Below are positions 11,401 to 24,397 of a DNA stretch of 64,000 nucleotides, piece after piece (the first letter of the stretch is position 1; every line of letters starts with the position of its first letter). The stretch covers positions 1 through 64,000 of the forward strand of contig NZ_SMFV01000004.1 in NCBI RefSeq assembly GCF_004339575.1. The letters run 5' to 3'. Position numbers and translations under genes: made by a program. This DNA comes from Phorcysia thermohydrogeniphila (lineage in GTDB: Bacteria > Aquificota > Aquificia > Desulfurobacteriales > Desulfurobacteriaceae). The notes under the pieces were generated by a model that had not been told where the DNA came from, did no database searches, and saw only the letters and a list, made by a program, of their open reading frames with translations.

Positions 11401-12832
11401 CTCCGTCCTAACCTGCCGTGCATCCTTTGGAGTCTGTGCCAAGTGTTACGGTAGGGACCTTGCAAGGAGACGCCCCGTACAGCTCGGAGAGGCGATAGGT
11501 ATCATCGCAGCCCAGTCCATCGGTGAGCCGGGTACTCAGCTAACGATGCGTACCTTCCACATCGGTGGTATTGCCATGAGGGGGGCTGAGGCCTCCGACT
11601 ACAGGGCTAAGCACGACGGTATCGTCAGGATATTTGACGTCAACACAATCACCGATAGGGAAGGCAGGGTTATCGTCATCAACAGGGCCGGAAAGATTGC
11701 CGTTGTTGACGAGAAGACCGGCAAACACCTTGAGCGCTACGACATACCCTACGCTGCAGTCCTTAAGGTTAAAGACGGAGAGAAAGTTACAAAAGGACAG
11801 GTACTTGCTGAGTGGGATCCTCACGCAATTCCAATTCTTGCCCTCAGGAAGGGTAGAGTTAGGTACAAGGACATCATCCCCGGTGTAACGATTTCTGAGA
11901 CTGAGCCGGTAGTTCTTGAGTACAGGACACTTCCTTACGAGCCTACGGTGGAGCTCCTTGACGAAGAGGGCAACGTAATTGACTTCTACCCAATCCCCGT
12001 AGGCGCAAGGATTATGGTTAAGGAAGGCCAAGAGGTAGAAGTTGGTGAGCAGATTGCAAGGCTTCCAAGGAAGATCGGTGGAACAAAGGACATCACCGGT
12101 GGTCTTCCAAGGGTTGCGGAGCTCTTTGAGGCAAGGAAGCCTAAGGACCCTGCAATCCTTGCCGAGATTAGCGGTAAGGTCTACATAGAAACCGACAAGA
12201 ACAAGAAGATAATAACAATCCTTGACCCAGAAACCGGTATTAAGCGTGAGTACGAAGTTCCAAAAGGTAAGTACATCTACGTAAGGACTGGAGACTACGT
12301 CAAAGCCGGAGAGCCTCTCACCGACGGACAGCTCAACCCTCACGACATCCTCAACATCCTCGGTGAAAGGGCTGTTGCAAGGTTCCTCCTTGACGAGATT
12401 CAGTCCGTATACCGCGCTCAGGGCGTAGACATCAACGACAAGCACTTTGAGGTAATCATCAGGAAGATGCTCTCTAAGGTAAGGATTGAAGACGCCGGAG
12501 ACAGCAACTTCTTAGTTGAAGAAGTTGTTGACAGAGAGGAGTTTGAAAGGGTAAGGGAACAGCTCTTCAAGGAGGGTAAGAGACCTCCTAAAGCAAGGCC
12601 TGTCCTTACAGGAATCACAAAGGCAGCCCTCTCTACAGACTCCTTCATCTCTGCTGCATCCTTCCAAGAGACGACAAGGGTTCTCTCTGAGGCCGCAATT
12701 GCCGGTAAGAGGGACTACTTACGCGGTCTCAAGGAGAACGTAATAATCGGAAGGCTCATTCCTGCTGGAACTGGAAGGAAGGAGTACAGGAAGGTTACTT
12801 GGACTCCGTGCAAGGAGACCCAAACTGAGTGA
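8420..12832 (+). CDS. rpoC: RNA polymerase subunit beta-prime
   Basis: The 1470-residue beta-prime subunit carries the catalytic Mg-binding loop [12 protein letters not shown] and the upstream [10 protein letters not shown] motif. The N-terminal zinc finger (C70, C72, C85, C88; [10 protein letters not shown]...[11 protein letters not shown]) and the second zinc site ending [16 protein letters not shown] are intact, as is the trigger-loop region [16 protein letters not shown]. The start is GTG at 8420 with aggagg upstream. A short hairpin (ggggagctcttagctccc) lies in the 79-base gap after rpoB but has no T-tract. A terminator follows the stop. Confidence 0.98.
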
Positions 12833-12858
12833 AACCTCTTCAGCGAGGAAATTCTCTA

Positions 12859-12886
12859 AGCCCCGCCACTACCGGCGGGGTTTTTT
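12859..12886 (+). terminator. Rho-independent terminator after rpoC
   Basis: The hairpin gCCCCGCC-actacc-GGCGGGG is followed directly by six T residues. It lies 26 bases after the rpoC stop and 30 bases before the comM start, so it closes the ribosomal/rpoBC cluster. Confidence 0.92.
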
Positions 12887-12915
12887 ATAATAAACAAAAC
12901 GGTAAGGGGGATTTT

Positions 12916-13761
12916 TTGGTATCCACCGTTATCAGCTATACAACCGTTGGCGTAGATGCCTTAGAGGTTTTCGTAGAGGTTGATGCCGGAAGGGGACTGC
13001 CGGGAGTAACAATCGTCGGCCTTCCGGACTCGGCGGTAAAGGAAAGTAAAGAGAGGGTAAGAGCGGCCATTGTAAACTCAGGCTACCCATTTCCAACGAA
13101 AAAGGTTGTGGTAAACCTTGCTCCGGCAGACTTAAGAAAGGAAGGAACTCTATACGACTTGCCTATAGCACTCGGAATACTGGCAACAGCAGGACTCCTT
13201 TCAGAAGAAAGTTTAAGGAACTACATAGTAGCTGGAGAGCTGGGTTTAAAAGGAGAAGTCACAAAGGTAAAAGGGGTTCTACCTGCCGCAATTCTTGCAA
13301 AAGAAAGAGGTTATAAAGGTTTAATAATTCCTCCTGAAAACGTTGAAGAGGCCTTACTCATAGAAGGAATAGAGGTTATACCCGTAAAGAACCTTGTAGA
13401 AGCGGTAGCTTTCCTCAATGGAGATATAGAGATACCTCCGGCCAAAGCTTTAGGCCTTAACTTAGAACTTAGCTACGACGTTGATATGGCCGATATCGTC
13501 GGTCAGCTCCACGCGAAGAGAGCTCTTGAAATCGCCGCAGCAGGCCACCACAACGTCTTTATGGTTGGCCCTCCCGGTTCAGGAAAAACTATGCTCGCAA
13601 GGAGGATGCCGACCATAATGCCCCCAATGACGGAAGAGGAAATCGTTGAAACGAGCAAGATATACAGCATAGCCGGGCTAACAGAAGAAGTTCCTGTAAC
13701 AAGGCGTCCTTTTAGAGCTCCCCACAGTAGCTCTTCAGACGTCTCCCTTATCGGTGGAGGG
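12916..13761 (+). pseudogene. comM: comM (yifB) 5' fragment, split by the Tn7-like element
   Basis: These 282 codons are the first part of ComM/YifB, an AAA+ hexameric helicase of the Mg-chelatase-like family that drives branch migration during natural transformation. The start is TTG at 12916 (protein begins VSTVISYTTVGVDALEVFVE after it) with taaggggg upstream. GLPDSAVKESKERVRAA and Walker A GPPGSGKT (about 218-225) are intact. The frame is cut after RAPHSSSSDVSLIGGG by the transposon left end. Walker B lies in the 3' fragment beyond the element, so neither piece can be a working ATPase. In-frame reading continues 29 codons into the transposon and stops at 13851. Confidence 0.95.
13757..13761 (+). 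repeat. Target site duplication GAGGG, left copy
   Basis: The five bases GAGGG directly before the element's terminal TGTAGAA are repeated directly after its terminal TTCTACA. Five bases is the duplication length made by Tn7-family transposases. Confidence 0.93.
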
Positions 13762-13827
13762 TGTAGAATCCAAAAGTTCCTGCAACTCTCCAACAAATAC
13801 TGCGACTCTACAAAATTTATTGCAACT
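13762..13827 (+). repeat. Transposon left end with three TnsB-type sites
   Basis: After the terminal TGTAGAA, the core TGC(A/G)ACT occurs at 13781, 13801 and 13821, exactly 20 bases apart, each preceded by an A-rich CAAAA/ACAAA block. Three spaced sites at the left end is the layout of Tn7 itself. These should be TnsB binding sites; that role is inferred from the repeat pattern and from conservation with the right end. Confidence 0.88.
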
Positions 13828-13838
13828 GAGGAACAGCT

Positions 13839-15491
13839 ATGCCTTCCTTAGAAGAAATAATACTAAACGACGATAGAATATGGAATAACACTCCTTACTT
13901 TATCCCTTTCGTGATTGACTTGCAGGAACTTGGCGATACTCTGTCCGGTCTCCATTTCAGGGTTCTTTTTCTTAACGAAAAGAAAGACTACGTTTTTACC
14001 GTTTTAATTCCACCAGAGTTCCTTAGATACTATTCAATTTTCAGCTACGTGGTAGTTGATAGAAAAAAAGAAAAGGTTGAAATAACAAAGATAGGAGAGG
14101 AAAGGGACGTTTGGTTTTCTCTTGAATCTAATAGTTCTTTGACAAGAGTGGGAGACATTCCGTCTCTTTCCAACTTTATTAAGCAATATGTTCCTAATAA
14201 CAGCCTTCATGGAGAGCTTGACAGGCAAAGAGTTTTAGTCATAAACTCAATAGATGGAACCTACTACATCCCAGCGTCAGTAATAGGTAGTGCTTTTTAC
14301 TTTCCCTCTACTAAGTTTACCCACAATCTCTTTAAAGGAACTTTGAGCAGTGAAGTTTTAGACTTTAGTTCTACGGCTACTCCTCCATACGTTCACGTTA
14401 AACACGGATACTCTAATGCAGACCCTTTCTTCCTGTACCTTTACCTGAGCAATAGGGAGGCTAAAAAGGCTTACGACTCAGTAAGTTCCCTCTACTTTGG
14501 AAAAAAGAAGCAAAGAAGGGAACAAGGGAAACCTTTAAGGTACGTTTTTAGGGCAACTTTGCCCGTTTCTGGGGATTGGGAAGCAGGATTCCGAGTTATT
14601 CCAATCTCTGAAAGTGAGTTTCTCGTGGCAGAGATATTGTGGGTTAATGAAAGAATGCTTTTAGGAACGGATACCCTTGAGGTCAAAAGGTACACCCGTG
14701 AGGGTAAAAAGGAGTCTAAGACGCTTGGGTTTTATCGTTCCTCTAATGCCGTAAGTTCTAAGTCTACTAAGAGATACGACGTTAATCAGGCTTATTCCTC
14801 AAAGGAGGCTCCAGAGAAAATTTCGTTCAATCCCCTTTCCCCTAAGGCTGATAAATCTGTAATCATAGTTAAAACCGGAGTTAAAGTACCTAATAATGGA
14901 ATGGTCAAGGCTATTCCATTAGCCCTTTCTACCAGTGAAGTTAAAGACTTGAGTAAGGTAAGGGGGAAAGAGGATGGTAGTGCTAAGCCTGTAAATTTGG
15001 AAAGGAAAGAGAGAGGGAGGGTGGGTAAAGATGAGAGAACATTTGGTTTGGACATCGTTAAAAAGTTAATGAGAAGAGTAGAGATTGCTTTGGGCGTCAA
15101 GATAGAATACAGAGAGTTCACTCCTAAGAAGATTAAACCACGGAGGAAAAAAGATTATCAACAGCTTTACTATCCAGACGGTAGAAAGAAAAAGGTTGGA
15201 GTATTCTTTATTCCGTTACCGCAGGGAAGATGTGCTACAGTTATCTTTACAGACCAGGGAGACGTTTCGGAGTTTATAAGCTTGCCTATAATTATAGGTA
15301 ATAGGTGTTTGGAATTCCCAGATGAAGTGGAGAACTTCTTTAAAGCGTTTATGGAGATAAATCACAAAGGGTTTAGACGCTTTTGTGAGAAAAGAGGCTT
15401 TAAGGTTTTTTACAAAAAGCCCATACAGGGCGTAAGTAGAAAAGACTGGGAGAATTGGGTGAGGAGGATGATAAGAATAGTTAGTAATTAG
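13839..15491 (+). CDS. tnsE: TnsE-like target-selection protein
   Basis: I identify this 550-residue protein as a TnsE homologue. TnsE directs Tn7 to replicating DNA, conjugal plasmids and DNA ends through 3'-recessed ends and the sliding clamp. Similarities to E. coli Tn7 TnsE, judged from memory, are the length (Tn7 538), the YYIPASVIGSAFYF block followed by a TLSS element near residues 135-165 (Tn7 has YHIPQLELARSLFL), a low-complexity middle after EKISFNPLSP, and the end SRKDWENWVRRMIR (Tn7 SREDMEGWAERVVR). The ATG lies only 77 bases from the transposon end with gagga upstream, and overlaps the stop of the read-through comM fragment. nurA follows after 19 bases. A profile search should confirm the family. 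Confidence 0.82.
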   Translation: MPSLEEIILNDDRIWNNTPYFIPFVIDLQELGDTLSGLHFRVLFLNEKKDYVFTVLIPPEFLRYYSIFSYVVVDRKKEKVEITKIGEERDVWFSLESNSSLTRVGDIPSLSNFIKQYVPNNSLHGELDRQRVLVINSIDGTYYIPASVIGSAFYFPSTKFTHNLFKGTLSSEVLDFSSTATPPYVHVKHGYSNADPFFLYLYLSNREAKKAYDSVSSLYFGKKKQRREQGKPLRYVFRATLPVSGDWEAGFRVIPISESEFLVAEILWVNERMLLGTDTLEVKRYTREGKKESKTLGFYRSSNAVSSKSTKRYDVNQAYSSKEAPEKISFNPLSPKADKSVIIVKTGVKVPNNGMVKAIPLALSTSEVKDLSKVRGKEDGSAKPVNLERKERGRVGKDERTFGLDIVKKLMRRVEIALGVKIEYREFTPKKIKPRRKKDYQQLYYPDGRKKKVGVFFIPLPQGRCATVIFTDQGDVSEFISLPIIIGNRCLEFPDEVENFFKAFMEINHKGFRRFCEKRGFKVFYKKPIQGVSRKDWENWVRRMIRIVSN

Positions 15492-15510
15492 AGTTTAGGG
15501 AGATGAAGCT

Positions 15511-16527
15511 ATGAAATATACGGAAGCATTGAAAAAAAGGGAGCAGATACTGAGGAAGATAGAAGAAGATATACAAAAACTTGAAGAGATGAAAAAAAGG
15601 CTTAGGGAAGAAGTTCTAGACAAATTAAGAAAAAGAAAGGTAAAAAGCCAGTCTGGTGATGAGAAATATAGAACAGCAGGGATAGATAGCGCTAGAGGGA
15701 TTAAAAGGTATATACCATCAAATTTTTATGCTTATGTGTGTATCTCTTTTAGAGAAAAGCTGGATACTTACTTGCAAGAAGTAGATTTTGATGTAATAGG
15801 TTTCGTGGAAGAGGAAGTTGAACTTGCGGATAGAATATTGGAAGGTTTATCAATGGGGGCCGAGATTTTGTTAGCTTGGGAGGAAGTAAAAAATGTAGAT
15901 TTTGTTTTTATGGACGGTTCTGTTTCTACATTTATAATAAAATTAAATTCTGCAGCAACAGCTGCAAGCAAATTGGAAGGGAAGTTGTCAAATAAACTAA
16001 AACAATTTTATGAGAAAATAATAAGTGCTTTCGTCGCATTATTATTATCTGGAAAGGTTGTATTTGTTCCTAAATCTACACAAAAGGACGACTTTAAAAA
16101 TTTCGTTTTAAGCAAATTGCCATCCTCCTTAAAAGAGAGTTTTGAAGATAGGATAAAATCTATTTCAGATGTAAAGCTAGCCCAAATAATTCTAGAGCCT
16201 TTGGAGTATGTGAGGGTTCCTATAGTTCCACATCCGTATAATCTATATAATCCGTATGAGGAAGGTACAGAGGAATATTATCGCTTTTCAGAATTAACAA
16301 AAAGCTTGTTTAGTTTAGCCAATAGTCCAGAAGTTTTCTACTTCAAGGGCATAGGCGAGTATACATATAGATTAGAGAGCTTTGTTCAAAATCTTCCGAT
16401 GGACCTAATAGCACAATACACTTTTGGAAAAACATTTTATTTAACAACCGAAGCTGATAGAAGAGCGAAGGACTATGTAAAAACTTTACTTAAGGCAAGT
16501 TTTCCTATAGAAGAGGAAATCAGGTAA
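15511..16527 (+). CDS. nurA: NurA-like 5'-3' nuclease
   Basis: The 338-residue protein has the layout of the NurA domain, an RNase H-fold nuclease that resects DNA ends together with HerA. After an N-terminal coiled coil (residues 1-45) come the two metal-binding Asp motifs, TAGIDSARG (D59) and FVFMDGSVST (D135), and near the C-terminus the typical TTEADRRAKDY element. The ribosome-binding site gggaga is present. It lies between tnsE and herA with gaps of 19 and 12 bases, so all three are probably co-transcribed. It is much richer in A+T than the neighbouring housekeeping genes, suggesting separate acquisition. Confidence 0.82.
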   Translation: MKYTEALKKREQILRKIEEDIQKLEEMKKRLREEVLDKLRKRKVKSQSGDEKYRTAGIDSARGIKRYIPSNFYAYVCISFREKLDTYLQEVDFDVIGFVEEEVELADRILEGLSMGAEILLAWEEVKNVDFVFMDGSVSTFIIKLNSAATAASKLEGKLSNKLKQFYEKIISAFVALLLSGKVVFVPKSTQKDDFKNFVLSKLPSSLKESFEDRIKSISDVKLAQIILEPLEYVRVPIVPHPYNLYNPYEEGTEEYYRFSELTKSLFSLANSPEVFYFKGIGEYTYRLESFVQNLPMDLIAQYTFGKTFYLTTEADRRAKDYVKTLLKASFPIEEEIR

Positions 16528-16539
16528 GGGGAGGGAACT

Positions 16540-18261
16540 ATGGCTGTAGGACAGATTATTCCACCGTACTCAACTTCTAAGATTAAAGTAGTTTTAAAAA
16601 AGGATTTTATTTTCAAAGGAGAACCTATTCTTGGCCGGTATTTAAAAGTAAACTTTAAAAGAAGAGGAAAAGATTGTATAGCGTTGCTTAGGGTGGTTAA
16701 TCTACAAACAGAAAATAGAACTCTAACAAATGCAGAAATGGCTCAAAATGCTACCCAAATAGAGGGAGTAAAGGAAAGAATACAGAAAAATGATGTTCTG
16801 ACAATAGATTGTGAAGTCCTAACAGCCTTTGAAAGGAATGGAGATTCATATAGAAGAGTCAACTTAGATACAATAATAAACTCACTTGAGGATGTAGAAT
16901 TTATTGATGAGAACCTAATAAACCAAGTAATAGATAGAATTAAAGACGATGTGTTTTACTTAGGAAAAGCTATAGATGAAAACTTTGACATCCCTTTGGT
17001 TTTTCAACCTTTCTATGTATTAAATGAAGCATATCACATACTTATATCAGGTCAAACAGGTTCAGGAAAATCTACAGAGGCAAAGAAAATTTTAGTAGCT
17101 TATGCAAAAAGTGACAAGCAGAAAGCAGATGAGTATAGAAGGAATAATAAACAATACAGAAAAATGAACTTTCTCATCTTAGACCCTGTTGGAGAATTTG
17201 CCAAATCTTTTCAGGGTAGAGATACAAGTCATTTTCCTTTAGATTTAGGGAATATCTGGAACATATTAGGCAAAAGAGAACCAGAAATTTATGGTATTGA
17301 CGAGATAGCTCTAGATAGATGGGATATGTTGGAAGTTTTGATGAAAAAAGAAGGCTTGTTAAAAACAATAGCTATAAAAGGTGCAGAAAATCAAGATATT
17401 GCGATAGATATAATAATCCGAGAGTTAAAGGCAAGAGGAGGATTATCTTCCTTAAAAAGAGTACCTGTTAGGGATTTATTTGACATTATTGAAGCCAATT
17501 TAGAAAGGATCTATACCCAATCGAATAAAAGAGAGGAGGTCCGAAACCTGATGAGAGAACCTCATATAGAAAGTGAATTTGAAGACAAGTGGCTACAGAT
17601 AGCAGATTGGTTTGATACAAGCACAGGTAAAAGAAGGATTGATAGCATAGTGAGGGACTTAACTCGGAATTCTGACAAAACAATAATTATAGATTTAAGT
17701 AGACTAGACTGGGAAAACCCAATAAAGTTTATGATTATCTATTCAATATTTTCAACACTGATAAGAGCAGGAGAAGATGCATATCAGGAAAACGACATGT
17801 TGAATACTTTAGTAGTAATAGATGAAGCTCATAGAATAGCACCTGCGAAGCTTCCATCAGATGCGGAAGAATACAAAAGAAGGACAAGAGAAAAAGTAGT
17901 AACAGCGTTTAGAGAGACAAGAAAACTTGGTATTGGTTGGATGGTTATTTCTACAAGAATTTCCAATTTAGATACAGAAATTTGGGAACACGCTCGTGTA
18001 AAATTATTCGGCTTTGGGCTGTCAACAGGTAAAGATGCCGACCTTTTAAAGGAACTGTATGGCAAAAATGTTCTTGAGATATATAAACAAAAGATATGGG
18101 ACCCATATGACTTAATGAGCGAAAGAGTTCATAAATTTATGATAGACGGACCTGTAAATGTAATATCAAAGAAAATTCCAGAATTCTATGAGGCTTATAA
18201 TAATGTGAACGAGTTCTTGGGAAAGAATGGACTGGATATACTATCCATTTTTACTTCTTAG
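16540..18261 (+). CDS. herA: HerA-like hexameric DNA-translocating ATPase
   Basis: This 573-residue protein resembles HerA of the FtsK-HerA superfamily, a ring translocase that partners with NurA. The N-terminal about 140 residues match the HAS-barrel position. Walker A is GQTGSGKS (171-178), Walker B is LVVIDEAHRIAP (D428, E429), and the late block STRISNLDTEIWEHARVKLF is typical. It directly follows the nurA-like gene, the classic pair in thermophiles, but here it is transposon cargo downstream of tnsE. Its end overlaps the convergent DUF4338 gene by 11 bases. Codon use is A/T-rich like the nurA gene. Roles in phage defence or in target-DNA processing are both possible. Confidence 0.87.
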   Translation: MAVGQIIPPYSTSKIKVVLKKDFIFKGEPILGRYLKVNFKRRGKDCIALLRVVNLQTENRTLTNAEMAQNATQIEGVKERIQKNDVLTIDCEVLTAFERNGDSYRRVNLDTIINSLEDVEFIDENLINQVIDRIKDDVFYLGKAIDENFDIPLVFQPFYVLNEAYHILISGQTGSGKSTEAKKILVAYAKSDKQKADEYRRNNKQYRKMNFLILDPVGEFAKSFQGRDTSHFPLDLGNIWNILGKREPEIYGIDEIALDRWDMLEVLMKKEGLLKTIAIKGAENQDIAIDIIIRELKARGGLSSLKRVPVRDLFDIIEANLERIYTQSNKREEVRNLMREPHIESEFEDKWLQIADWFDTSTGKRRIDSIVRDLTRNSDKTIIIDLSRLDWENPIKFMIIYSIFSTLIRAGEDAYQENDMLNTLVVIDEAHRIAPAKLPSDAEEYKRRTREKVVTAFRETRKLGIGWMVISTRISNLDTEIWEHARVKLFGFGLSTGKDADLLKELYGKNVLEIYKQKIWDPYDLMSERVHKFMIDGPVNVISKKIPEFYEAYNNVNEFLGKNGLDILSIFTS

Positions 18262-19336
18262 GCTCCAGTCTTTTGGGGAGCCATCTTTTTTTCCAATAAA
18301 AGAAGTTTTCTTCCAATGGTTTTGCAATAAACTTAGGGTCATTTGTTTTCATTAACAAGAACTCTCGCCAATTCTCTGCGAGAGGTGCAAAGTAATAACC
18401 CCTTTTTATAGAATGCATAGTTAATTTTTCTTTACTTAGCCCTAAGATTTTTAGTCCCTCAGATATTACTCTAAGTTTATAATTCGGGCCTTGTCCGAAC
18501 TTATATTTTTTCAACACTTCTTCGTTTCCATACTTCCTAATAACCTCAAGTAATAATTCGTATACTCCATTCAAAGTTAGATGAAAGTGGCTTTGTCCTC
18601 TTGTATATCCTACGAACTTCCATCCTCTTAATCTTGTATAGATAGCACTTTTGCCAAAAGCTCCCATGGTATCAATCGCAACTAGATAAGGAAGTTTCTT
18701 CTTGTTTTTTATCACTGTTCTTGTATTGCCGTACCTATTGTAGAAATCGTCAATGACTTGTTTTGATATGGCAGAGAGAGCCACTAGTTTAGCTCCTAAA
18801 ATTTGGTTGTAAGGTGGAACAGCTCCCAATATGTATGCTGTTAGCATGTTATAAAGTCTTTCTTCTTTTATTTTTCTACTCCATCCTATGAATTCATCCC
18901 TTACTCCCAGACCAATAATCGGGTCGCAGAGTCCGAATATTCCTATTACCTTTCCTGTATTATCGTCCCACAGGATGTAGTCCATCCTTCTTCCGAAACC
19001 GGTAGAAACAGGAACACTCCAAAAGGATTTTGCAAAGTTAAAGATTTTCTTCTTAAGAAGAGTTTTCTTATCAGACTTTCCTTTTTCTATTAATTCCAAT
19101 CTTGGCACTATATTTTGAGGATCAATTTCATCTAACGATTTTGCAAAAAATTTAGAAACATCCTTTTCATATTTTTTATACTGGGCATTTAAAATCTTAG
19201 CAAACTTGTATTGTATGTCCCTTATACAGGAAACTACTTGTAAGTTCCCTTCCTTATCCATTTTAAAGCCATACTTTTCTAGCTCTTCTTGAATTCTAGC
19301 TATATACTGCTTCCTTTCTTCATCTATCATAGCCAT
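18251..19336 (-). CDS. DUF4338 (DruA-like) protein of the transposon
   Basis: The 361-residue product contains the DUF4338 pattern shared with DruA of Druantia systems and with proteins common in mobile elements. GLCDPIIGLGVRDEFIGWS (about 135-155) leads to an LYNMLTAYILGAVPPYNQI...GAKLVALSA block and then DTMGAFGKSAIYTRLRGWKF and GYTRGQSHFHL. Its biochemical activity is not known to me. It starts 2 bases after the tniQ stop, so the two are very likely co-translated. The ATG at 19336 is used; a second ATG two codons later is equally possible because aaggat overlaps the first. It could assist target choice or be defence cargo. Confidence 0.75.
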   Translation of the reverse strand: MAMIDEERKQYIARIQEELEKYGFKMDKEGNLQVVSCIRDIQYKFAKILNAQYKKYEKDVSKFFAKSLDEIDPQNIVPRLELIEKGKSDKKTLLKKKIFNFAKSFWSVPVSTGFGRRMDYILWDDNTGKVIGIFGLCDPIIGLGVRDEFIGWSRKIKEERLYNMLTAYILGAVPPYNQILGAKLVALSAISKQVIDDFYNRYGNTRTVIKNKKKLPYLVAIDTMGAFGKSAIYTRLRGWKFVGYTRGQSHFHLTLNGVYELLLEVIRKYGNEEVLKKYKFGQGPNYKLRVISEGLKILGLSKEKLTMHSIKRGYYFAPLAENWREFLLMKTNDPKFIAKPLEENFFYWKKRWLPKRLEPKK

Positions 19337-19338
19337 CC

Positions 19339-20520
19339 TTATCCCTGTATTTGTTTTTCATCAAAAAAAAAGTTAACATCTCTTCTTTTTCTGCTGTCAA
19401 GAAATCTACCTGTAATTTTCCTTAGGTTTATCCAGTTTATCTTTAATCCTCTCTTACGAAGATATTTTACTGCCTCTTCTATTTCCCTGAGAGTTGGAGC
19501 ATACCCTTTGTCGCTATACTTGTCCACAAATTTCTTATACCAGAATGGATAATCTCTGAAATCTCTTGTTAATTCGGTCTTTTTTAGTTTATTGTCAACT
19601 ATGAACTTTTCTAAATTCTCTTTTGAAGAAAGTATGTCGGTTATCACTGTAAATAGAATATATTGCACTTTAATGGGAGCATCATAATAGAGTCTCTTTT
19701 TCTTCTTGTCCAGCCGAACTCCAATGTTTTCTTCCTCTATTCTTATTGAACCCCAATTCCTTTTCTGCCAGTTGTAAACTACTTTGGTAAAGTGTTCCAG
19801 GACTTTAAAATAAGCTATAGAGTAATAGACCCTGTCTTCAAATTCAAAGTATCCTTTTTTCAAAATTTCATATAGCAATCTTATAGCTTCTATTCCTTTT
19901 GACTCTTTTGGAACCTCTTCTGCTTTCGCATTCATGAACTCAAACCCGCACTTCCAGCAGTGGAAGTGGAACTTATCTGGCTTCCACTTTTGAATGGTCA
20001 GAGGCTCTCCGCACTCCGGACATCTGTCCAGCAAAAATACTTTATGCTTTACACAAGCCGTAGAGAACGTTAGCCTCCACTCTTTACGGAAGTATTCTTC
20101 TTCTCTTAAACAGTAAGGGCAGAACCTAAGACCGTGCCTTCTGTTCCTACCGCCTCTGAATCCAACGGGGTTAATAAAAGGTTTATTGCTGTTAAACTTT
20201 TTCTGGGCTTCAAATAAGTATCCTTCATAGCTCTTCAAGGTTAAGTTCCAAACCCTTTCCTTTTTGAACCCTACTCTCTGAGAAAGAGCTTTTACGAAGT
20301 CCTCTCGGTTCCAGTCAAAGTCCCCGTTAAACACAGATTGGTAATTCCCGAAGTAAAGGTTGAGAAAACTGGACGGTATGGTAAAGTTTTTGACGGCCAT
20401 CCTGCAGAACCACGAAGAGATAAGTTCGTTCTCAAACGGCTGAGGGTGAACTCTTATCTTCCTGTTGCTAAGACTGTTCTTCGTTAATCCTTGTAGGTTC
20501 GTTAGTAATCGTCTACCCAC
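19339..20520 (-). CDS. tniQ: TniQ/TnsD-family target-site selector
   Basis: The 393-residue protein has the TniQ N-terminal motif PQPFENELISSWFCRMA (about 28-43) and a zinc-finger module: CPYC near 131, CVKHK, CPECG and CWKCG. Helix-rich, probably DNA-binding sequence follows. TniQ/TnsD proteins recognise the attachment site and recruit TnsC; this one presumably recognises comM. It is shorter than Tn7 TnsD (508) and is the only TniQ in the element. The start is GTG at 20520; no ribosome-binding site is visible, but TATAAC lies 5 bases upstream, so the message may be leaderless or the start may lie further in. Confidence 0.9.
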   Translation of the reverse strand: MGRRLLTNLQGLTKNSLSNRKIRVHPQPFENELISSWFCRMAVKNFTIPSSFLNLYFGNYQSVFNGDFDWNREDFVKALSQRVGFKKERVWNLTLKSYEGYLFEAQKKFNSNKPFINPVGFRGGRNRRHGLRFCPYCLREEEYFRKEWRLTFSTACVKHKVFLLDRCPECGEPLTIQKWKPDKFHFHCWKCGFEFMNAKAEEVPKESKGIEAIRLLYEILKKGYFEFEDRVYYSIAYFKVLEHFTKVVYNWQKRNWGSIRIEEENIGVRLDKKKKRLYYDAPIKVQYILFTVITDILSSKENLEKFIVDNKLKKTELTRDFRDYPFWYKKFVDKYSDKGYAPTLREIEEAVKYLRKRGLKINWINLRKITGRFLDSRKRRDVNFFFDEKQIQG

Positions 20521-20523
20521 GCT

Positions 20524-20570
20524 GTTATAATTTAATTAGGGTTTATAGAATTATAACACTATGACACTAT
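20524..20570. promoter_or_regulatory. Divergent control region between tniQ and the small RHH-like gene
   Basis: The 67-base gap contains a perfect 9-base inverted repeat, GTTATAATT (20524-20532) and AATTATAAC (20549-20557), whose arms also look like -10 elements for each direction. Next to it is a direct repeat ACACTAT (20556-20562 and 20564-20570) spaced 8 bases apart. Such short repeats suit a ribbon-helix-helix repressor. The operator role is inferred. Confidence 0.55.
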
Positions 20571-20587
20571 AGTTGCAAGAGGTTAAC

Positions 20588-20770
20588 ATGAGAAAGGAGA
20601 AAAAAGAGATAGTTCAGATTAGTTTGAGAATTGAAAGGGAAAAGTTAAATGCTTACAAGAAATGGTTAATAGACAACGGATACAGGTCTATTAACGAACA
20701 CTTAAACAAAATGATAGACAACATTCTGAAAAGAGCCAAGGAGGCGAAAGACTCTAATCAAAAGGATTAG
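20588..20770 (+). CDS. Small ribbon-helix-helix-like DNA-binding protein
   Basis: This 60-residue, highly charged protein starts MRKEKKEIVQISLRIERE, where alternating hydrophobic residues suggest the short beta strand of Arc/CopG/MetJ-type regulators, followed by two helices (KLNAYKKWLIDNG and SINEHLNKMIDNILKRA). I chose the ATG at 20588 because agaggt lies just upstream; an in-frame TTG at 20573 is less likely. It lies on the opposite strand to all tns core genes, diverges from tniQ and overlaps the tnsC end tail-to-tail by 17 bases. It probably represses the tniQ operon, but the fold is assigned only by eye. Confidence 0.6.
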   Translation: MRKEKKEIVQISLRIEREKLNAYKKWLIDNGYRSINEHLNKMIDNILKRAKEAKDSNQKD

Positions 20771-21641
20771 CTCTTTTCAGGAGAGGTAGCGTTATCCTTT
20801 CCTCTCCTGAAAGGATTGCCTCCCTTGCTGCTAACTTAATGTTTCTTATTATTTCCGCAAGTATTCCTTCCGTTTTTTCTATCAGGTACTTTGCAAGTTC
20901 TTCGTTCTTCCACATGTAAGACGGCTGTCTTAGGGGAAGAGTCGCCTCTATCGTTTTTAGTAGCCTCAAAAATTCCTTGTCGTAAGTCCAGTTGGTTAGG
21001 TGATATGGGTTAAACCTTCTCTTAACCTCTTCGTCGGTTTCTACGGCTATGAGGACGTCTTTTGTCCCTACCAGCACTATAGGTATTCTCAACCTGTTGG
21101 TAAGGCTTTTTACTGCCGCCAGAACTCTCCTTTGTTGGATTGCTGTGCCGTTAAGGACGTTGTGAAACTCGTCAAAGATAATCATCTTGATGTTAAGCAA
21201 GTCAACGTAGTGCCTGACGTTTTTCTCCTTTTCCAACACGTCCTCATTTTTCCTATAAGGAACTCCTATCTCGTCAAGTATCCTGTCATAGAGAAGTTTT
21301 TCTTTGGGTTCGGTGGGAGTTTCCACTACGAGAACGGGTATTTGGTCAACGTCGGCTTCTTCGTCCTCTATCGGAAAGTGTTTTTCAAAGAAGTGTCTTA
21401 CTATCATCGTTTTTCCTGAGCCGGAGTCTCCGTAAAGGAGTATTCCATCCATTCTCGGCTTTCTGGGTAGTTTGAGGAGCAGTTCCATGTAGTCCAGAAT
21501 TTTCTTTGCTCTGCTGTGGTTTATAAATCTGTCCGTCATTGCAAATATTATTCTTTCCTCGTCGGAGGCCTTGAGAACTTTCCTTGCGTCTGGTATAAGT
21601 GAGTTAACGTGTTTTTCTATCTCTGCTTGAGAGAGCTTCAC
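20754..21641 (-). CDS. tnsC: Transposition AAA+ regulator TnsC (TniB-like)
   Basis: TnsC links target selectors (TniQ, TnsE) to the TnsAB transposase through ATP-dependent filaments. From the GTG at 21641 the protein is 295 residues. Walker A is GDSGSGKT (about 71-78), Walker B is KMIIFDEFHNVL (about 153-164), and sensor-type LVGTKDVLIAVETDEEVKRRF follows. Its compact size is nearer TniB than Tn7 TnsC (555). The start was chosen because GGAGGA lies 9 bases upstream; an upstream TTG at 21671 would overlap tnsB but lacks a ribosome-binding site. Confidence 0.92.
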   Translation of the reverse strand: MKLSQAEIEKHVNSLIPDARKVLKASDEERIIFAMTDRFINHSRAKKILDYMELLLKLPRKPRMDGILLYGDSGSGKTMIVRHFFEKHFPIEDEEADVDQIPVLVVETPTEPKEKLLYDRILDEIGVPYRKNEDVLEKEKNVRHYVDLLNIKMIIFDEFHNVLNGTAIQQRRVLAAVKSLTNRLRIPIVLVGTKDVLIAVETDEEVKRRFNPYHLTNWTYDKEFLRLLKTIEATLPLRQPSYMWKNEELAKYLIEKTEGILAEIIRNIKLAAREAILSGEERITLPLLKRANPFD

Positions 21642-21657
21642 TTTCACGTGTCCTCCG

Positions 21658-23547
21658 TTAATCAACTTCAAACGGTTCTATATCGTCTAAGTCGTCAAAT
21701 TGTGGCGTTCTTGGTGGTAGTTGGCGTGTTTTTTCTTCGTTTGCTTCCTTTTTGCTTTCGTCTGAAGAAGTCTTCTGTTCTACGTAGGACTTAAAGTCGT
21801 AAAGTTTCTTGGAGTTCCTTTTGCGTTTTACTCTCTTGGTTTTCTCTAATGCCTCTTCTTCCAGCGTTATGAGCTTTTTAAGTCCCTCAAGTAGTTCGTA
21901 TTCCTTTGCTTTTCTCTTAAGGTTTAGGCGTTTTCTGTATTCTTTAAGTTCCCACAAAGACAGCTTGGGTAGTCGGGTTTCCCGACAAGGTATTTTGTAG
22001 TACTCTTTAGTCTGGGGGTGCTGGAAGTAGACGTACCTCATGTCCCTTGGGTCGTACTTGAATGTGTAGGTTTCACTCTTTTCGCCTTGTTTTCTAAGCC
22101 TTATAAATGGCTTTAGGACGTTGTCGTAGTATCTAAGTCCAAACAAGTGAACTCCGTCTTTTTGAATGGTTCTCCTGGCAGAGGGTAGTAGTGAAAACCA
22201 GAGTTTTTTCGCCTCTTCACCGGTTATGAGTTTAAAAAGCCCTCTTCCTTTAGAAGTTTCGTTTCCTAAGATGCCTTCCTTATACTTTTCTTCAGGTGTA
22301 GTGCCTGTTTCTGAGTGAATTCTTTTGTGGTAGTAGTTAACTATAAACTCTACGAGCCACTTCTCAAGTTCTAATAGGGTCATGCAGGCGTGTCTTTCAG
22401 GGTCGTAGCCTTTTTTCTCTACGGGGTTGGAGAAAGTCGTACCCGGTAGGTTGTGAATTTCCTCGTTAATTGTTCTGAAGAGTCTTTCTACGTGTCCGCC
22501 ATAGTGAGGAGTTTTACTTGGTCTGTAGTCTATCGTTATGCCGTATTCCTTGCAGAAATCTTCAAGGTAGGTACTCCTAAACTCTTTGGCGTTGTCAACG
22601 TGTATCTTCTCTGGTATTCCCCACACCTCCCACTTACCTTCCACTCCAAGTTCTTCCAAGAGGTTGTCTTTAGGGGTAATTCCGACGAAGAGGGTTTGAG
22701 CTACTGAAAAGTAGCTTGGGGCGTCCAAAGATAGGTAATATCCGAAAACTGTTCTGCTATAGACGTCTAATGCTATGGTTAGGTATGGCCTACCTATAGG
22801 TTCTCTCGTCAACTCGTCTACTACTACTACGTCAAGGAGCGTGTGGTCTATCTGGACGACTTCAAGGGGACGCTCTGGTTCAAAAGAGCTACTTGCGGCT
22901 CCGTAAAGCGACTGAGCTACGACTTTACCTTTTCTTTTCTGAGTAGTCATAAACGGGGATAGCTCCTTAATTCGGTTTCTAAACGTGTTAATGTGAGGAG
23001 GAGTAAGCCCAAGCTCTCGGCACTTTAAGAGGAGTATCTGGTAGGCTCTCTTTACGGAAACTCTTTTGTAGGGGTTGAGATAGACCGTTTCTATTACTTC
23101 TTTTATGAGTTTTTCTACTTCAGGATTAACTCTTTTCTTACCTTTTCCACCTCTTCTGCCGTAGTTGGGGACTAACGCTGAAAGCTGTCCGCCAGATTCT
23201 TCAAACTGCTTTATCCACCGGTATAGGGTAGCAGGGTTAAGGTTGAACTCTTTTGCTCTTTCTTCTACCTGTTTTTTGGTTCTACTTGGCACCAATAAAG
23301 GCTTTATTACTTCGTACCTAAACCTTGCCAGCTCTAAGTACTTTGAGTCGGGAGAGTCAGGGTCTATTGGGTGATAGGGTTTTTCGTCAGTTGAAATTGA
23401 ATCAAGCTGAGAAATCGGGACGATTAAAGTTTCCCCAGTTTCAAGGTCTGTTACTTCAACTGTTGACAGGTCTACCACGGCAGTAATTAAGACTCTGCGG
23501 TTTCTAAAAAACGCAGTTTGCCCTCTTTTAATCTCTATAGGGGACAC
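21658..23547 (-). CDS. tnsB: Transposase TnsB (DDE, TniA-like)
   Basis: The 629-residue protein is the DDE strand-transfer transposase that binds the end repeats. The catalytic triad is visible as D234 (QIDHTLLD), D318 (IHVDNAKEF) and E354 (GGHVERLFRTINEE), giving the classic D-D-35-E spacing. N-terminal helix-turn-helix segments (around ATLYRWIKQFEES, 106-118) should bind DNA. An acidic C-terminal tail ends DDLDDIEPFEVD, which in Tn7 contacts TnsC. The start is GTG at 23547, overlapping the tnsA stop by 13 bases, so translation is probably coupled. In Tn7-like systems with TnsA, the pair gives cut-and-paste movement. Confidence 0.96.
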   Translation of the reverse strand: MSPIEIKRGQTAFFRNRRVLITAVVDLSTVEVTDLETGETLIVPISQLDSISTDEKPYHPIDPDSPDSKYLELARFRYEVIKPLLVPSRTKKQVEERAKEFNLNPATLYRWIKQFEESGGQLSALVPNYGRRGGKGKKRVNPEVEKLIKEVIETVYLNPYKRVSVKRAYQILLLKCRELGLTPPHINTFRNRIKELSPFMTTQKRKGKVVAQSLYGAASSSFEPERPLEVVQIDHTLLDVVVVDELTREPIGRPYLTIALDVYSRTVFGYYLSLDAPSYFSVAQTLFVGITPKDNLLEELGVEGKWEVWGIPEKIHVDNAKEFRSTYLEDFCKEYGITIDYRPSKTPHYGGHVERLFRTINEEIHNLPGTTFSNPVEKKGYDPERHACMTLLELEKWLVEFIVNYYHKRIHSETGTTPEEKYKEGILGNETSKGRGLFKLITGEEAKKLWFSLLPSARRTIQKDGVHLFGLRYYDNVLKPFIRLRKQGEKSETYTFKYDPRDMRYVYFQHPQTKEYYKIPCRETRLPKLSLWELKEYRKRLNLKRKAKEYELLEGLKKLITLEEEALEKTKRVKRKRNSKKLYDFKSYVEQKTSSDESKKEANEEKTRQLPPRTPQFDDLDDIEPFEVD

Positions 23548-24215
23548 GGTAGGCCTCTTTTAGCGTCCTTTTTCAAGTAAACGTAGGTGAGATTCGTTAG
23601 TTCTTCGTCAAGGTTAGTTTGAAGTTTACCCGTGGCTATTAGATGCCATACGGTTGAAAGGTAGAAGCCTGTTGGTATGAACTCTCCTTTGCCGAGTATC
23701 TTGGCCACGTCAATAACCCTTACGGGTTGTTTTTCTCTCACGAAGTTAATTACGTTTTCCACGTAGGTAGCATAGAGGTTTTCAGGTAAGGGCTTATCCA
23801 GATAGTTGTAGAGGAACTTGTAGTTTTTAAGTCTTGGTGTTAATAGGTCTTTTTCCGTGAATACTTTAAAGTCGTAGCCTTTTTTAAGGGCATACTTTTC
23901 AAGAGTTTCAAACTTCGTAAGAAGCTTGTCAGAGTTTTTCCTTATTTCTGAGGAGTACTTGACTTCAACGAGAAGAGGTCTTCTTAGAGGTTCATTAAAG
24001 AAAACTAGGAAATCAGGGACGTAGTGTCTTCCAGAAGGAGAAGGAACCTTGCATGGTTGTTCTACGTAAGCTTTCACGTCTGGAGAGAACTCCAAGTGGT
24101 AGAGAAATGCTAACTCCAATTGAGACTCATAGCTTACTATTCTGGAGTTCTTCCTGCTTGAGAATTTGCCACCTACCGAAAGTGTCTGAATGGGAATAGC
24201 TCTTACAGGTTTCAT
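23535..24215 (-). CDS. tnsA: Transposon endonuclease TnsA
   Basis: TnsA cuts the 5' ends of the transposon so that it moves by excision rather than by cointegrate formation. The 226-residue protein shows the restriction-endonuclease-like core: SYESQLELAFLYHLE (E34), YVEQPCK (Q53), HYVPDFLVFF (D68) and LLVEVKYS (E84, K86), then a C-terminal winged-helix-type region. It is the first gene from the right end, as in Tn7. The ATG is preceded by gaggag 9 bases upstream. The promoter must lie within or beside the right-end repeats, which would allow TnsB to autoregulate it. Confidence 0.94.
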   Translation of the reverse strand: MKPVRAIPIQTLSVGGKFSSRKNSRIVSYESQLELAFLYHLEFSPDVKAYVEQPCKVPSPSGRHYVPDFLVFFNEPLRRPLLVEVKYSSEIRKNSDKLLTKFETLEKYALKKGYDFKVFTEKDLLTPRLKNYKFLYNYLDKPLPENLYATYVENVINFVREKQPVRVIDVAKILGKGEFIPTGFYLSTVWHLIATGKLQTNLDEELTNLTYVYLKKDAKRGLPCPL

Positions 24216-24256
24216 AAGGCGTTCTCCTCTATACTTAGGTTATCATATTGGTAGAG

Positions 24257-24392
24257 AATTTGCAATAACTTTTGTGTTTTGGTGGAGTGGTCGCACTATA
24301 TTGTGTTATAGTCGCAGTATTTGTTATCATACTCCACCTGTTAAAACGTTGACTTACGGCTTAGGTAGTTGCAAAAATTTTTGTGTTCTACA
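24257..24392 (-). repeat. Transposon right end with four TnsB-type sites
   Basis: Read inward from 24392, TGTAGAA is followed by TGC(A/G)A(C)-type cores starting at 24373, 24316, 24295 and 24264, each with an upstream ACACAA/AACAAA block. The outermost core is at position 20 from the end, exactly as on the left. Four sites on the right and three on the left match the asymmetric Tn7 design. The innermost site (ttgcaa) lies near the likely tnsA promoter. Confidence 0.85.
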
Positions 24393-24397
24393 GAGGG
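24393..24397 (+). repeat. Target site duplication GAGGG, right copy
   Basis: The five bases match those at 13757-13761. Joining the left copy directly to base 24398 gives codons for LIGGG-TNVKPGE, the uninterrupted conserved ComM sequence. Confidence 0.93.

What the first reader, a model, noticed from the sequence alone, without database searches (positions are those of the whole stretch)
18251..20520. TniQ coupled to a DUF4338/DruA-like protein
The DUF4338 gene starts 2 bases after tniQ. DUF4338 (DruA) is known from Druantia defence islands and mobile elements, with no settled activity. Pairing with the only TniQ of an element that hit comM suggests a second targeting or assembly factor, perhaps compensating for the short TniQ. 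Alternatively it is defence cargo.
Basis: partly seen in the sequence, partly recalled or inferred. Interest (0 to 1): 0.65.

Follow-up and report, generated by a model that had tools for sequence, protein, structure and literature searches.

The report
DruA-NurA-HerA cargo in a comM transposon
The gene next to the transposon's targeting gene tniQ is not a second targeting factor but most likely part of a three-gene DNA-attack cassette (DruA, NurA, HerA) that the transposon carries as cargo; the same trio turns up in unrelated bacteria and in virus-classified contigs, and may be an undescribed phage-defence system.

Summary
Confirmed: a DruA/DUF4338 gene (18251-19336, -) starts 2 bp after tniQ (19339-20520, -) in a 10,631-bp Tn7-like element (13762-24392, TSD GAGGG) inside comM.

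Not supported: DruA as a second targeting factor. Two other Aquificota genomes hold elements of the same TnsABC-TniQ family in comM (one with both junctions read, at the same codon position) without DruA. Their tns/tniQ DNA is 94-96% identical, yet the genes after tniQ are unrelated restriction-modification genes. That slot is exchangeable cargo.

DruA belongs to a recurrent trio with a NurA-family nuclease and a HerA translocase. The trio recurs without Tn7 genes in a Thermocrinis MAG, two IMG/VR contigs and a Nautiliaceae MAG whose contig ends inside DruA. DruA's GC3 matches the NurA-HerA genes better than the tns genes. DruA is predicted to have a GNAT (acyltransferase) fold, not a target-selector fold.

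Most likely mechanism (inferred): HerA pumps DNA into the NurA nuclease, and DruA acylates DNA or protein to mark self or trigger attack. I found no paper naming this trio. A conserved left-end gene (13839-15491) is a better candidate for a second targeting factor than DruA.

The parts
13757..13761 (.). target-site duplication GAGGG, left copy, in comM
   Evidence: matching copy at 24393-24397
13762..13830 (.). transposon left end: TGTAGAATCCAAAAG... with TnsB-site-like repeats
   Evidence: inverted repeats 13771-13799/24246-24274 and 13792-13810/24307-24325
13839..15491 (+). 550-aa protein of unknown family, first gene inside the left end; a homologue sits at another Tn7-like left end in G044
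   Evidence: no Pfam, PADLOC, NCBIfam or PDB match
15511..16527 (+). NurA-family nuclease of the cassette
   Evidence: 46% identical (E=3e-103) to L025 2257-3288, which passes the Pfam NurA cut-off (28.2 vs 21 bits); no direct Pfam NurA hit for the window protein itself
16540..18261 (+). HerA-family hexameric translocase ATPase (DUF87)
   Evidence: PF01935 E=3.9e-8, above cut-off
18251..19336 (-). DruA / DUF4338 protein, 361 aa, predicted GNAT-type fold; convergent with herA (11-bp overlap)
19339..20520 (-). TniQ (TnsD-like) target-selection protein, 393 aa
   Evidence: PF06527 E=5.9e-26; family alignment
20754..21671 (-). TnsC (TniB) AAA+ regulator
   Evidence: PF05621 E=2.4e-60
21658..23547 (-). 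TnsB DDE transposase
   Evidence: PF09299; PADLOC TnsB E=1e-49
23535..24215 (-). TnsA endonuclease
   Evidence: PF08722 and PF08721
24240..24392 (.). transposon right end, ...TTCTACA
24393..24397 (.). target-site duplication GAGGG, right copy
12829..13761 (+). comM (YifB), 5' part
   Evidence: PF13541 and PF01078
24398..25066 (+). comM, 3' part including Walker B (LFLDE)
   Evidence: PF01078 and PF13335

Best explanation
DruA is cargo, not a targeting factor. It is one gene of a DruA-NurA-HerA cassette, probably anti-phage or anti-plasmid, carried by a Tn7-like transposon whose TnsABC and TniQ target comM without DruA. Shown: the gene content, the exact insertion, recurrence of the trio outside Tn7, DruA-free relatives in comM, and an exchangeable slot after tniQ. 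Inferred: DruA is transcribed with tniQ because it entered at the end of the tns operon. HerA forms a hexameric ring that pumps double-stranded DNA into a NurA nuclease dimer, as in solved HerA-NurA complexes. DruA, with a GNAT-type fold, transfers an acyl group onto DNA or a protein, either marking self DNA or switching the HerA-NurA machine on.
For: (1) The trio recurs. L007 (Thermocrinis MAG) has druA-nurA-herA as overlapping genes with no Tn7 genes (HerA 29% id E=2e-62, NurA 29% E=5e-20). L025 (Nautiliaceae MAG) has DruA 74%, HerA 59% and NurA 46%, in the window's convergent layout. Virus-classified contigs L055 and L056 have druA>nurA>herA (Pfam NurA E~1e-7, DUF87 E=1e-11 to 1e-13; HerA E=8e-67 and 2e-50 to the window's). 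In 136 Aquificota genomes the window's HerA type occurs strongly in two, both beside DruA. (2) comM relatives lack DruA. (3) Between G121 and G125 the tns/tniQ DNA is 94-96% identical but downstream DNA does not align; the next genes are different RM genes, as in G101 (HsdM-like by its sequence). (4) GC3: DruA 0.33, NurA 0.29, HerA 0.27, against TniQ 0.43 and TnsABC 0.44-0.49. (5) DruA model pLDDT 84.8; PDB neighbours are mostly GNAT acyltransferases.
Against: The 2-bp gap to tniQ is tighter than in relatives (142-261 bp), as expected of a coupled gene. In the window and L025 druA is convergent with nurA-herA, so it is not in their operon there. L025's DruA is cut by the contig end, so a TniQ beyond it cannot be excluded, although none was found in that incomplete MAG. 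Defence activity is untested. No single Foldseek match is significant (best E=0.018), so the GNAT reading rests on consistency and on PMC10853773. DruA also occurs without NurA-HerA in phage contigs.
Confidence: 0.8

Rival explanations
1. DruA is a second target-selection or assembly factor: it binds TniQ or comM DNA and helps place the element, as TnsF does for Tn6022, which also targets comM with a short TniQ.
For: Adjacent co-directional gene with a 2-bp gap. Tn6022 shows that a short TniQ can need an operonic partner for comM, and Faure et al. report short TniQs without a known partner (PMC10293859).
Against: Same-family elements in comM in G121 and G125 lack DruA, and nothing shared replaces it after tniQ. 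The closest TniQ relative (G101) has no DruA. DruA relatives mostly occur without Tn7 genes. The model resembles acyltransferases, not recombinases or HTH target selectors. TniQ length is normal for the family.
Confidence: 0.06
2. DruA is cargo, but a solo gene (a Druantia remnant or single-gene system) that happens to lie beside NurA-HerA.
For: Solo DruA genes occur in phage contigs L041 and L042, in a Pelagibacter phage (L074) and in an inovirus-like contig (L008). In the window druA points against nurA-herA.
Against: The trio recurs in five loci in different hosts or virus contigs, three of them as a tandem with NurA and HerA.
Confidence: 0.12
3. DruA regulates transposition indirectly, for example by acylating TnsC or TniQ or by marking transposon DNA, without choosing the target.
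For: Likely co-transcription with tniQ; acyltransferase-like fold.
Against: No other Tn7-like element found here carries it; the same DruA clade occurs without any transposon.
Confidence: 0.02

Closest known systems
Tn6022-type Tn7-like transposons (TnsABC, TniQ, TnsF; comM; PMC10293859)
   Same: Insertion in comM near the Walker B motif; short TniQ with a co-directional neighbour gene; a further gene of 500+ aa on the opposite strand
   Different: The neighbour is a GNAT-like DruA, not the zinc-finger/tyrosine-recombinase-like TnsF; relatives in comM lack it; no TnsF gene was seen in the element
Druantia anti-phage systems (DruA with DruB, DruC and DruE, type I)
   Same: DruA is homologous over its full length (32-34% identity to type I DruA)
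   Different: No DruE-type helicase, DruB or DruC; the partners are NurA and HerA
HerA-nuclease defence systems and archaeal HerA-NurA (PMC12977600; its refs on SIR2-HerA and HerA-DUF4297; PMC11291478)
   Same: HerA translocase paired with a nuclease
   Different: Addition of DruA; carried as Tn7-like cargo; no published DruA link found

Membership tests
Tn7-like transposon | TnsA, TnsB, TnsC/TniB and TniQ genes together | tested here: met
   Pfam hits
Tn7-like transposon | TGT...ACA ends with repeated TnsB-like sites and a 5-bp TSD | tested here: met
   TSD GAGGG
Tn6022 family (comM, TnsF) | insertion in comM | tested here: met
Tn6022 family (comM, TnsF) | tnsF next to tniQ (zinc fingers plus tyrosine-recombinase-like part) | tested here: not met
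   the neighbour is PF14236 DruA and no recombinase domain is found in the element's genes; DruA model without a recombinase-like match among the hits shown
Tn6022 family (comM, TnsF) | tnsE on the opposite strand | tested here: inconclusive
   13839-15491 has that place and size but no sequence match
Target selector for comM (function of DruA) | present in related elements that target comM | tested here: not met
   absent in G121 and G125
DruA / DUF4338 family | PF14236 above its curated cut-off | tested here: met
   215 vs 27 bits; 49 invariant columns shared with Druantia I DruA
GNAT fold | structural match to GNAT acyltransferases | tested here: inconclusive
   pLDDT 84.8; best PDB hits mostly GNAT-type but E >= 0.018; PMC10853773 calls DUF4338 a GNAT domain
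Druantia system | DruE (YprA-like) helicase with DruA | tested here: not met
   no such helicase among the element's genes
HerA-NurA pair | HerA DUF87 domain | tested here: met
   above cut-off
HerA-NurA pair | NurA domain PF09376 | tested here: inconclusive
   not hit directly, but the close homologue L025 (46%) passes; D59, E118, D135 and D316 invariant in 6 sequences
Anti-phage defence system | protects cells from phage | not testable with these tools
   needs an experiment

The most novel reading that the evidence does not exclude
DruA-NurA-HerA is an undescribed mobile defence system in which a GNAT-fold DruA acylates DNA bases (or a partner protein) to separate self from non-self and HerA-NurA destroys unmarked DNA; it moves on Tn7-like elements and in virus-like contigs.
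Probability: 0.3. Interest if true: 0.65.

Novelty: new variant of a known kind. Interest (0 to 1): 0.42.

Why it matters
It removes DruA from the list of likely Tn7 target selectors and points to a three-gene cassette that links two defence-associated families not seen joined before in the papers searched. Because the trio is small and DruA has no known activity, it offers a compact way to find out what DruA does, a question that has stayed open for Druantia. Related elements in comM with the same transposition genes and different cargo also give a clean natural control for comM targeting by TniQ.

Tried and rejected
DruA as a Mu Mom-like DNA modifier: hhalign gave no similarity (one Mom sequence only). 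Genome and viral scans with the DruA sequence alone found nothing; alignments were needed. A shallow structure (4 sequences) had pLDDT 61 and was replaced. The NurA profile found no PDB chain. The left-end gene of the G121 element is not convincingly related to 13839-15491. Window NurA had no plasmid match; the HerA matches on plasmids were few, and the Rhizobium one is NurA-HerA-GHKL without a clear DruA. The insertion point of the G101 element was not resolved, but its comM is intact.

Full report
OBSERVATION. The host element is complete. It has TnsA, TnsB, TnsC and TniQ on the minus strand, ends TGTAGAA...TTCTACA at 13762 and 24392, repeated end motifs, and a 5-bp duplication GAGGG. Joining the flanks restores an open comM frame with the junction in the IGGG codons, about 16 codons before Walker B. 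Faure et al. (PMC10293859) report that Tn6022 inserts in comM using a short TniQ (369 aa) plus TnsF, which recognises the Walker B region.

TEST OF THE TARGETING IDEA. TniQ relatives occur in 6 of 136 Aquificota genomes, counting the window's own. In G121 the element lies inside comM with TSD GGGGA at the same codon position as here. In G125 the right junction is the same and the comM halves lie on two contigs. Neither carries DruA. comM is found in 130 of 136 genomes; it is split at about residue 311-315 only in G000, G121 and G125, and is intact in G101, G044 and G037. The TnsABC and TniQ stretches of G121 and G125 are 94-96% identical in DNA, apart from a TnpB-like gene inserted between tnsC and tniQ in G121. 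Downstream of tniQ nothing aligns: G121 has a 443-aa Eco57I-type methylase, G125 a 707-aa N6 methylase, and G101 an HsdM-like gene (named from its sequence, not scanned). The place behind tniQ is thus exchangeable cargo, and in the cases read it holds restriction genes. TniQ length in the family is 382-435 aa, so 393 aa is ordinary. The TniQ tree does not resolve whether comM targeting arose once (support 58).

WHAT DRUA TRAVELS WITH. In Aquificota, DruA relatives are in 4 of 136 genomes, and only the window's lies with TniQ. L007 (the Thermocrinis MAG G075) has DruA, NurA-like and HerA as overlapping genes and no Tn7 genes. HerA is 29% identical to the window's (E=2e-62) and NurA 29% (E=5e-20). 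This HerA type has strong matches only in G000 and G075, both beside DruA. A Nautiliaceae MAG (L025) has DruA 74%, HerA 59% and NurA 46%, in the same convergent layout as the window, not next to comM on the side that can be read; its DruA is cut by the contig end. Two IMG/VR contigs, L055 and L056, carry druA>nurA>herA in tandem with Pfam-level NurA and HerA domains. Other DruA genes are in Druantia type I operons (L009, L010, L039, L040; L011 with the helicase), beside a YprA-like helicase (L006), alone in phage contigs (L041, L042, L074), in a 7.4-kb inovirus-like contig (L008), or beside other ATPases (L064, L065). Among about 20 DruA loci read, only the window's has TniQ beside it; L055 and L056 were read by ORF only, and L025 is open at that side.

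COMPOSITION. GC3 is 0.27-0.33 for HerA, NurA and DruA, 0.40 for the 550-aa gene, and 0.43-0.49 for TniQ and TnsABC. The step between DruA and TniQ fits separate origins, though on its own it is modest.

FOLD. With ten aligned relatives the DruA model reaches mean pLDDT 84.8 and pTM 0.81. Its best PDB neighbours are mostly GNAT-type acyltransferases (malonyl-CoA decarboxylase, tRNA(Met) cytidine acetyltransferase with probability 0.92, MesI, KKT23). No single E-value is below 0.018, so this is supportive, not proof. It agrees with a published statement that DUF4338 is a GNAT-like domain fused to some DndF proteins (PMC10853773). Foldseek gave no recombinase-like or Tn7 target-selector match among the hits shown.

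MECHANISM. In known HerA-NurA complexes a HerA hexamer feeds double-stranded DNA into a NurA dimer, which degrades it; the authors of PMC12977600 suggest an antiviral role, and HerA with SIR2 or DUF4297 is an established defence pair. Here the same machine would be directed or licensed by DruA through acyl transfer to DNA or protein. That step is inference. A Mom-like reaction found no sequence support.

CONCLUSION. The trio itself appears not to be described: no paper in the library holds NurA, HerA and Druantia together. That library lacks most subscription journals.

A BETTER SECOND-FACTOR CANDIDATE. The 550-aa gene at 13839-15491 is the first gene inside the left end, on the strand opposite to tns. 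Its only clear homologue among the Aquificota searched (G044, L070 9571-11247) sits just behind a tRNA-Pro gene and a TGTAGAA... end with repeated GCGACTGG motifs. Its place is like that of tnsE in Tn6022, but sequence searches found no link to TnsE.

Noticed in passing
window 13839-15491 (+); L070 9571-11247 (+): 550-aa protein of unknown family, first gene inside a Tn7-like left end in two elements (comM here, tRNA-Pro in G044); possible divergent TnsE-like factor, unproven.
   Followed up: partly
L019 13092-14357 (-): A TnpB-like gene (OrfB_IS605 and Cas12f1-like TNB domains) lies between tnsC and tniQ of the G121 comM element and is absent from the nearly identical G125 element.
   Followed up: partly
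L008 (7394 bp): Inovirus-like contig (Zot-like ATPase, rolling-circle-type replication gene) ending in a DruA gene 47% identical to the window's.
   Followed up: no
L064 1029-4783; L065 993-4735: Long DruA proteins (about 660 aa) overlap a GHKL-type ATPase gene on Roseobacter plasmids; a further possible DruA partner.
   Followed up: partly
L073 4779-9853: Rhizobium plasmid with NurA, HerA and a GHKL-type ATPase in tandem and no clear DruA.
   Followed up: partly
L061 2309-9137: Nitrosophilus labii plasmid carries two consecutive tnsA-tnsB pairs before one tniB and one tniQ.
   Followed up: no
L018 15947-16575: tnsA of the G101 element is split into two fragments, so that element may be immobile or contain a sequencing error.
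   Followed up: no
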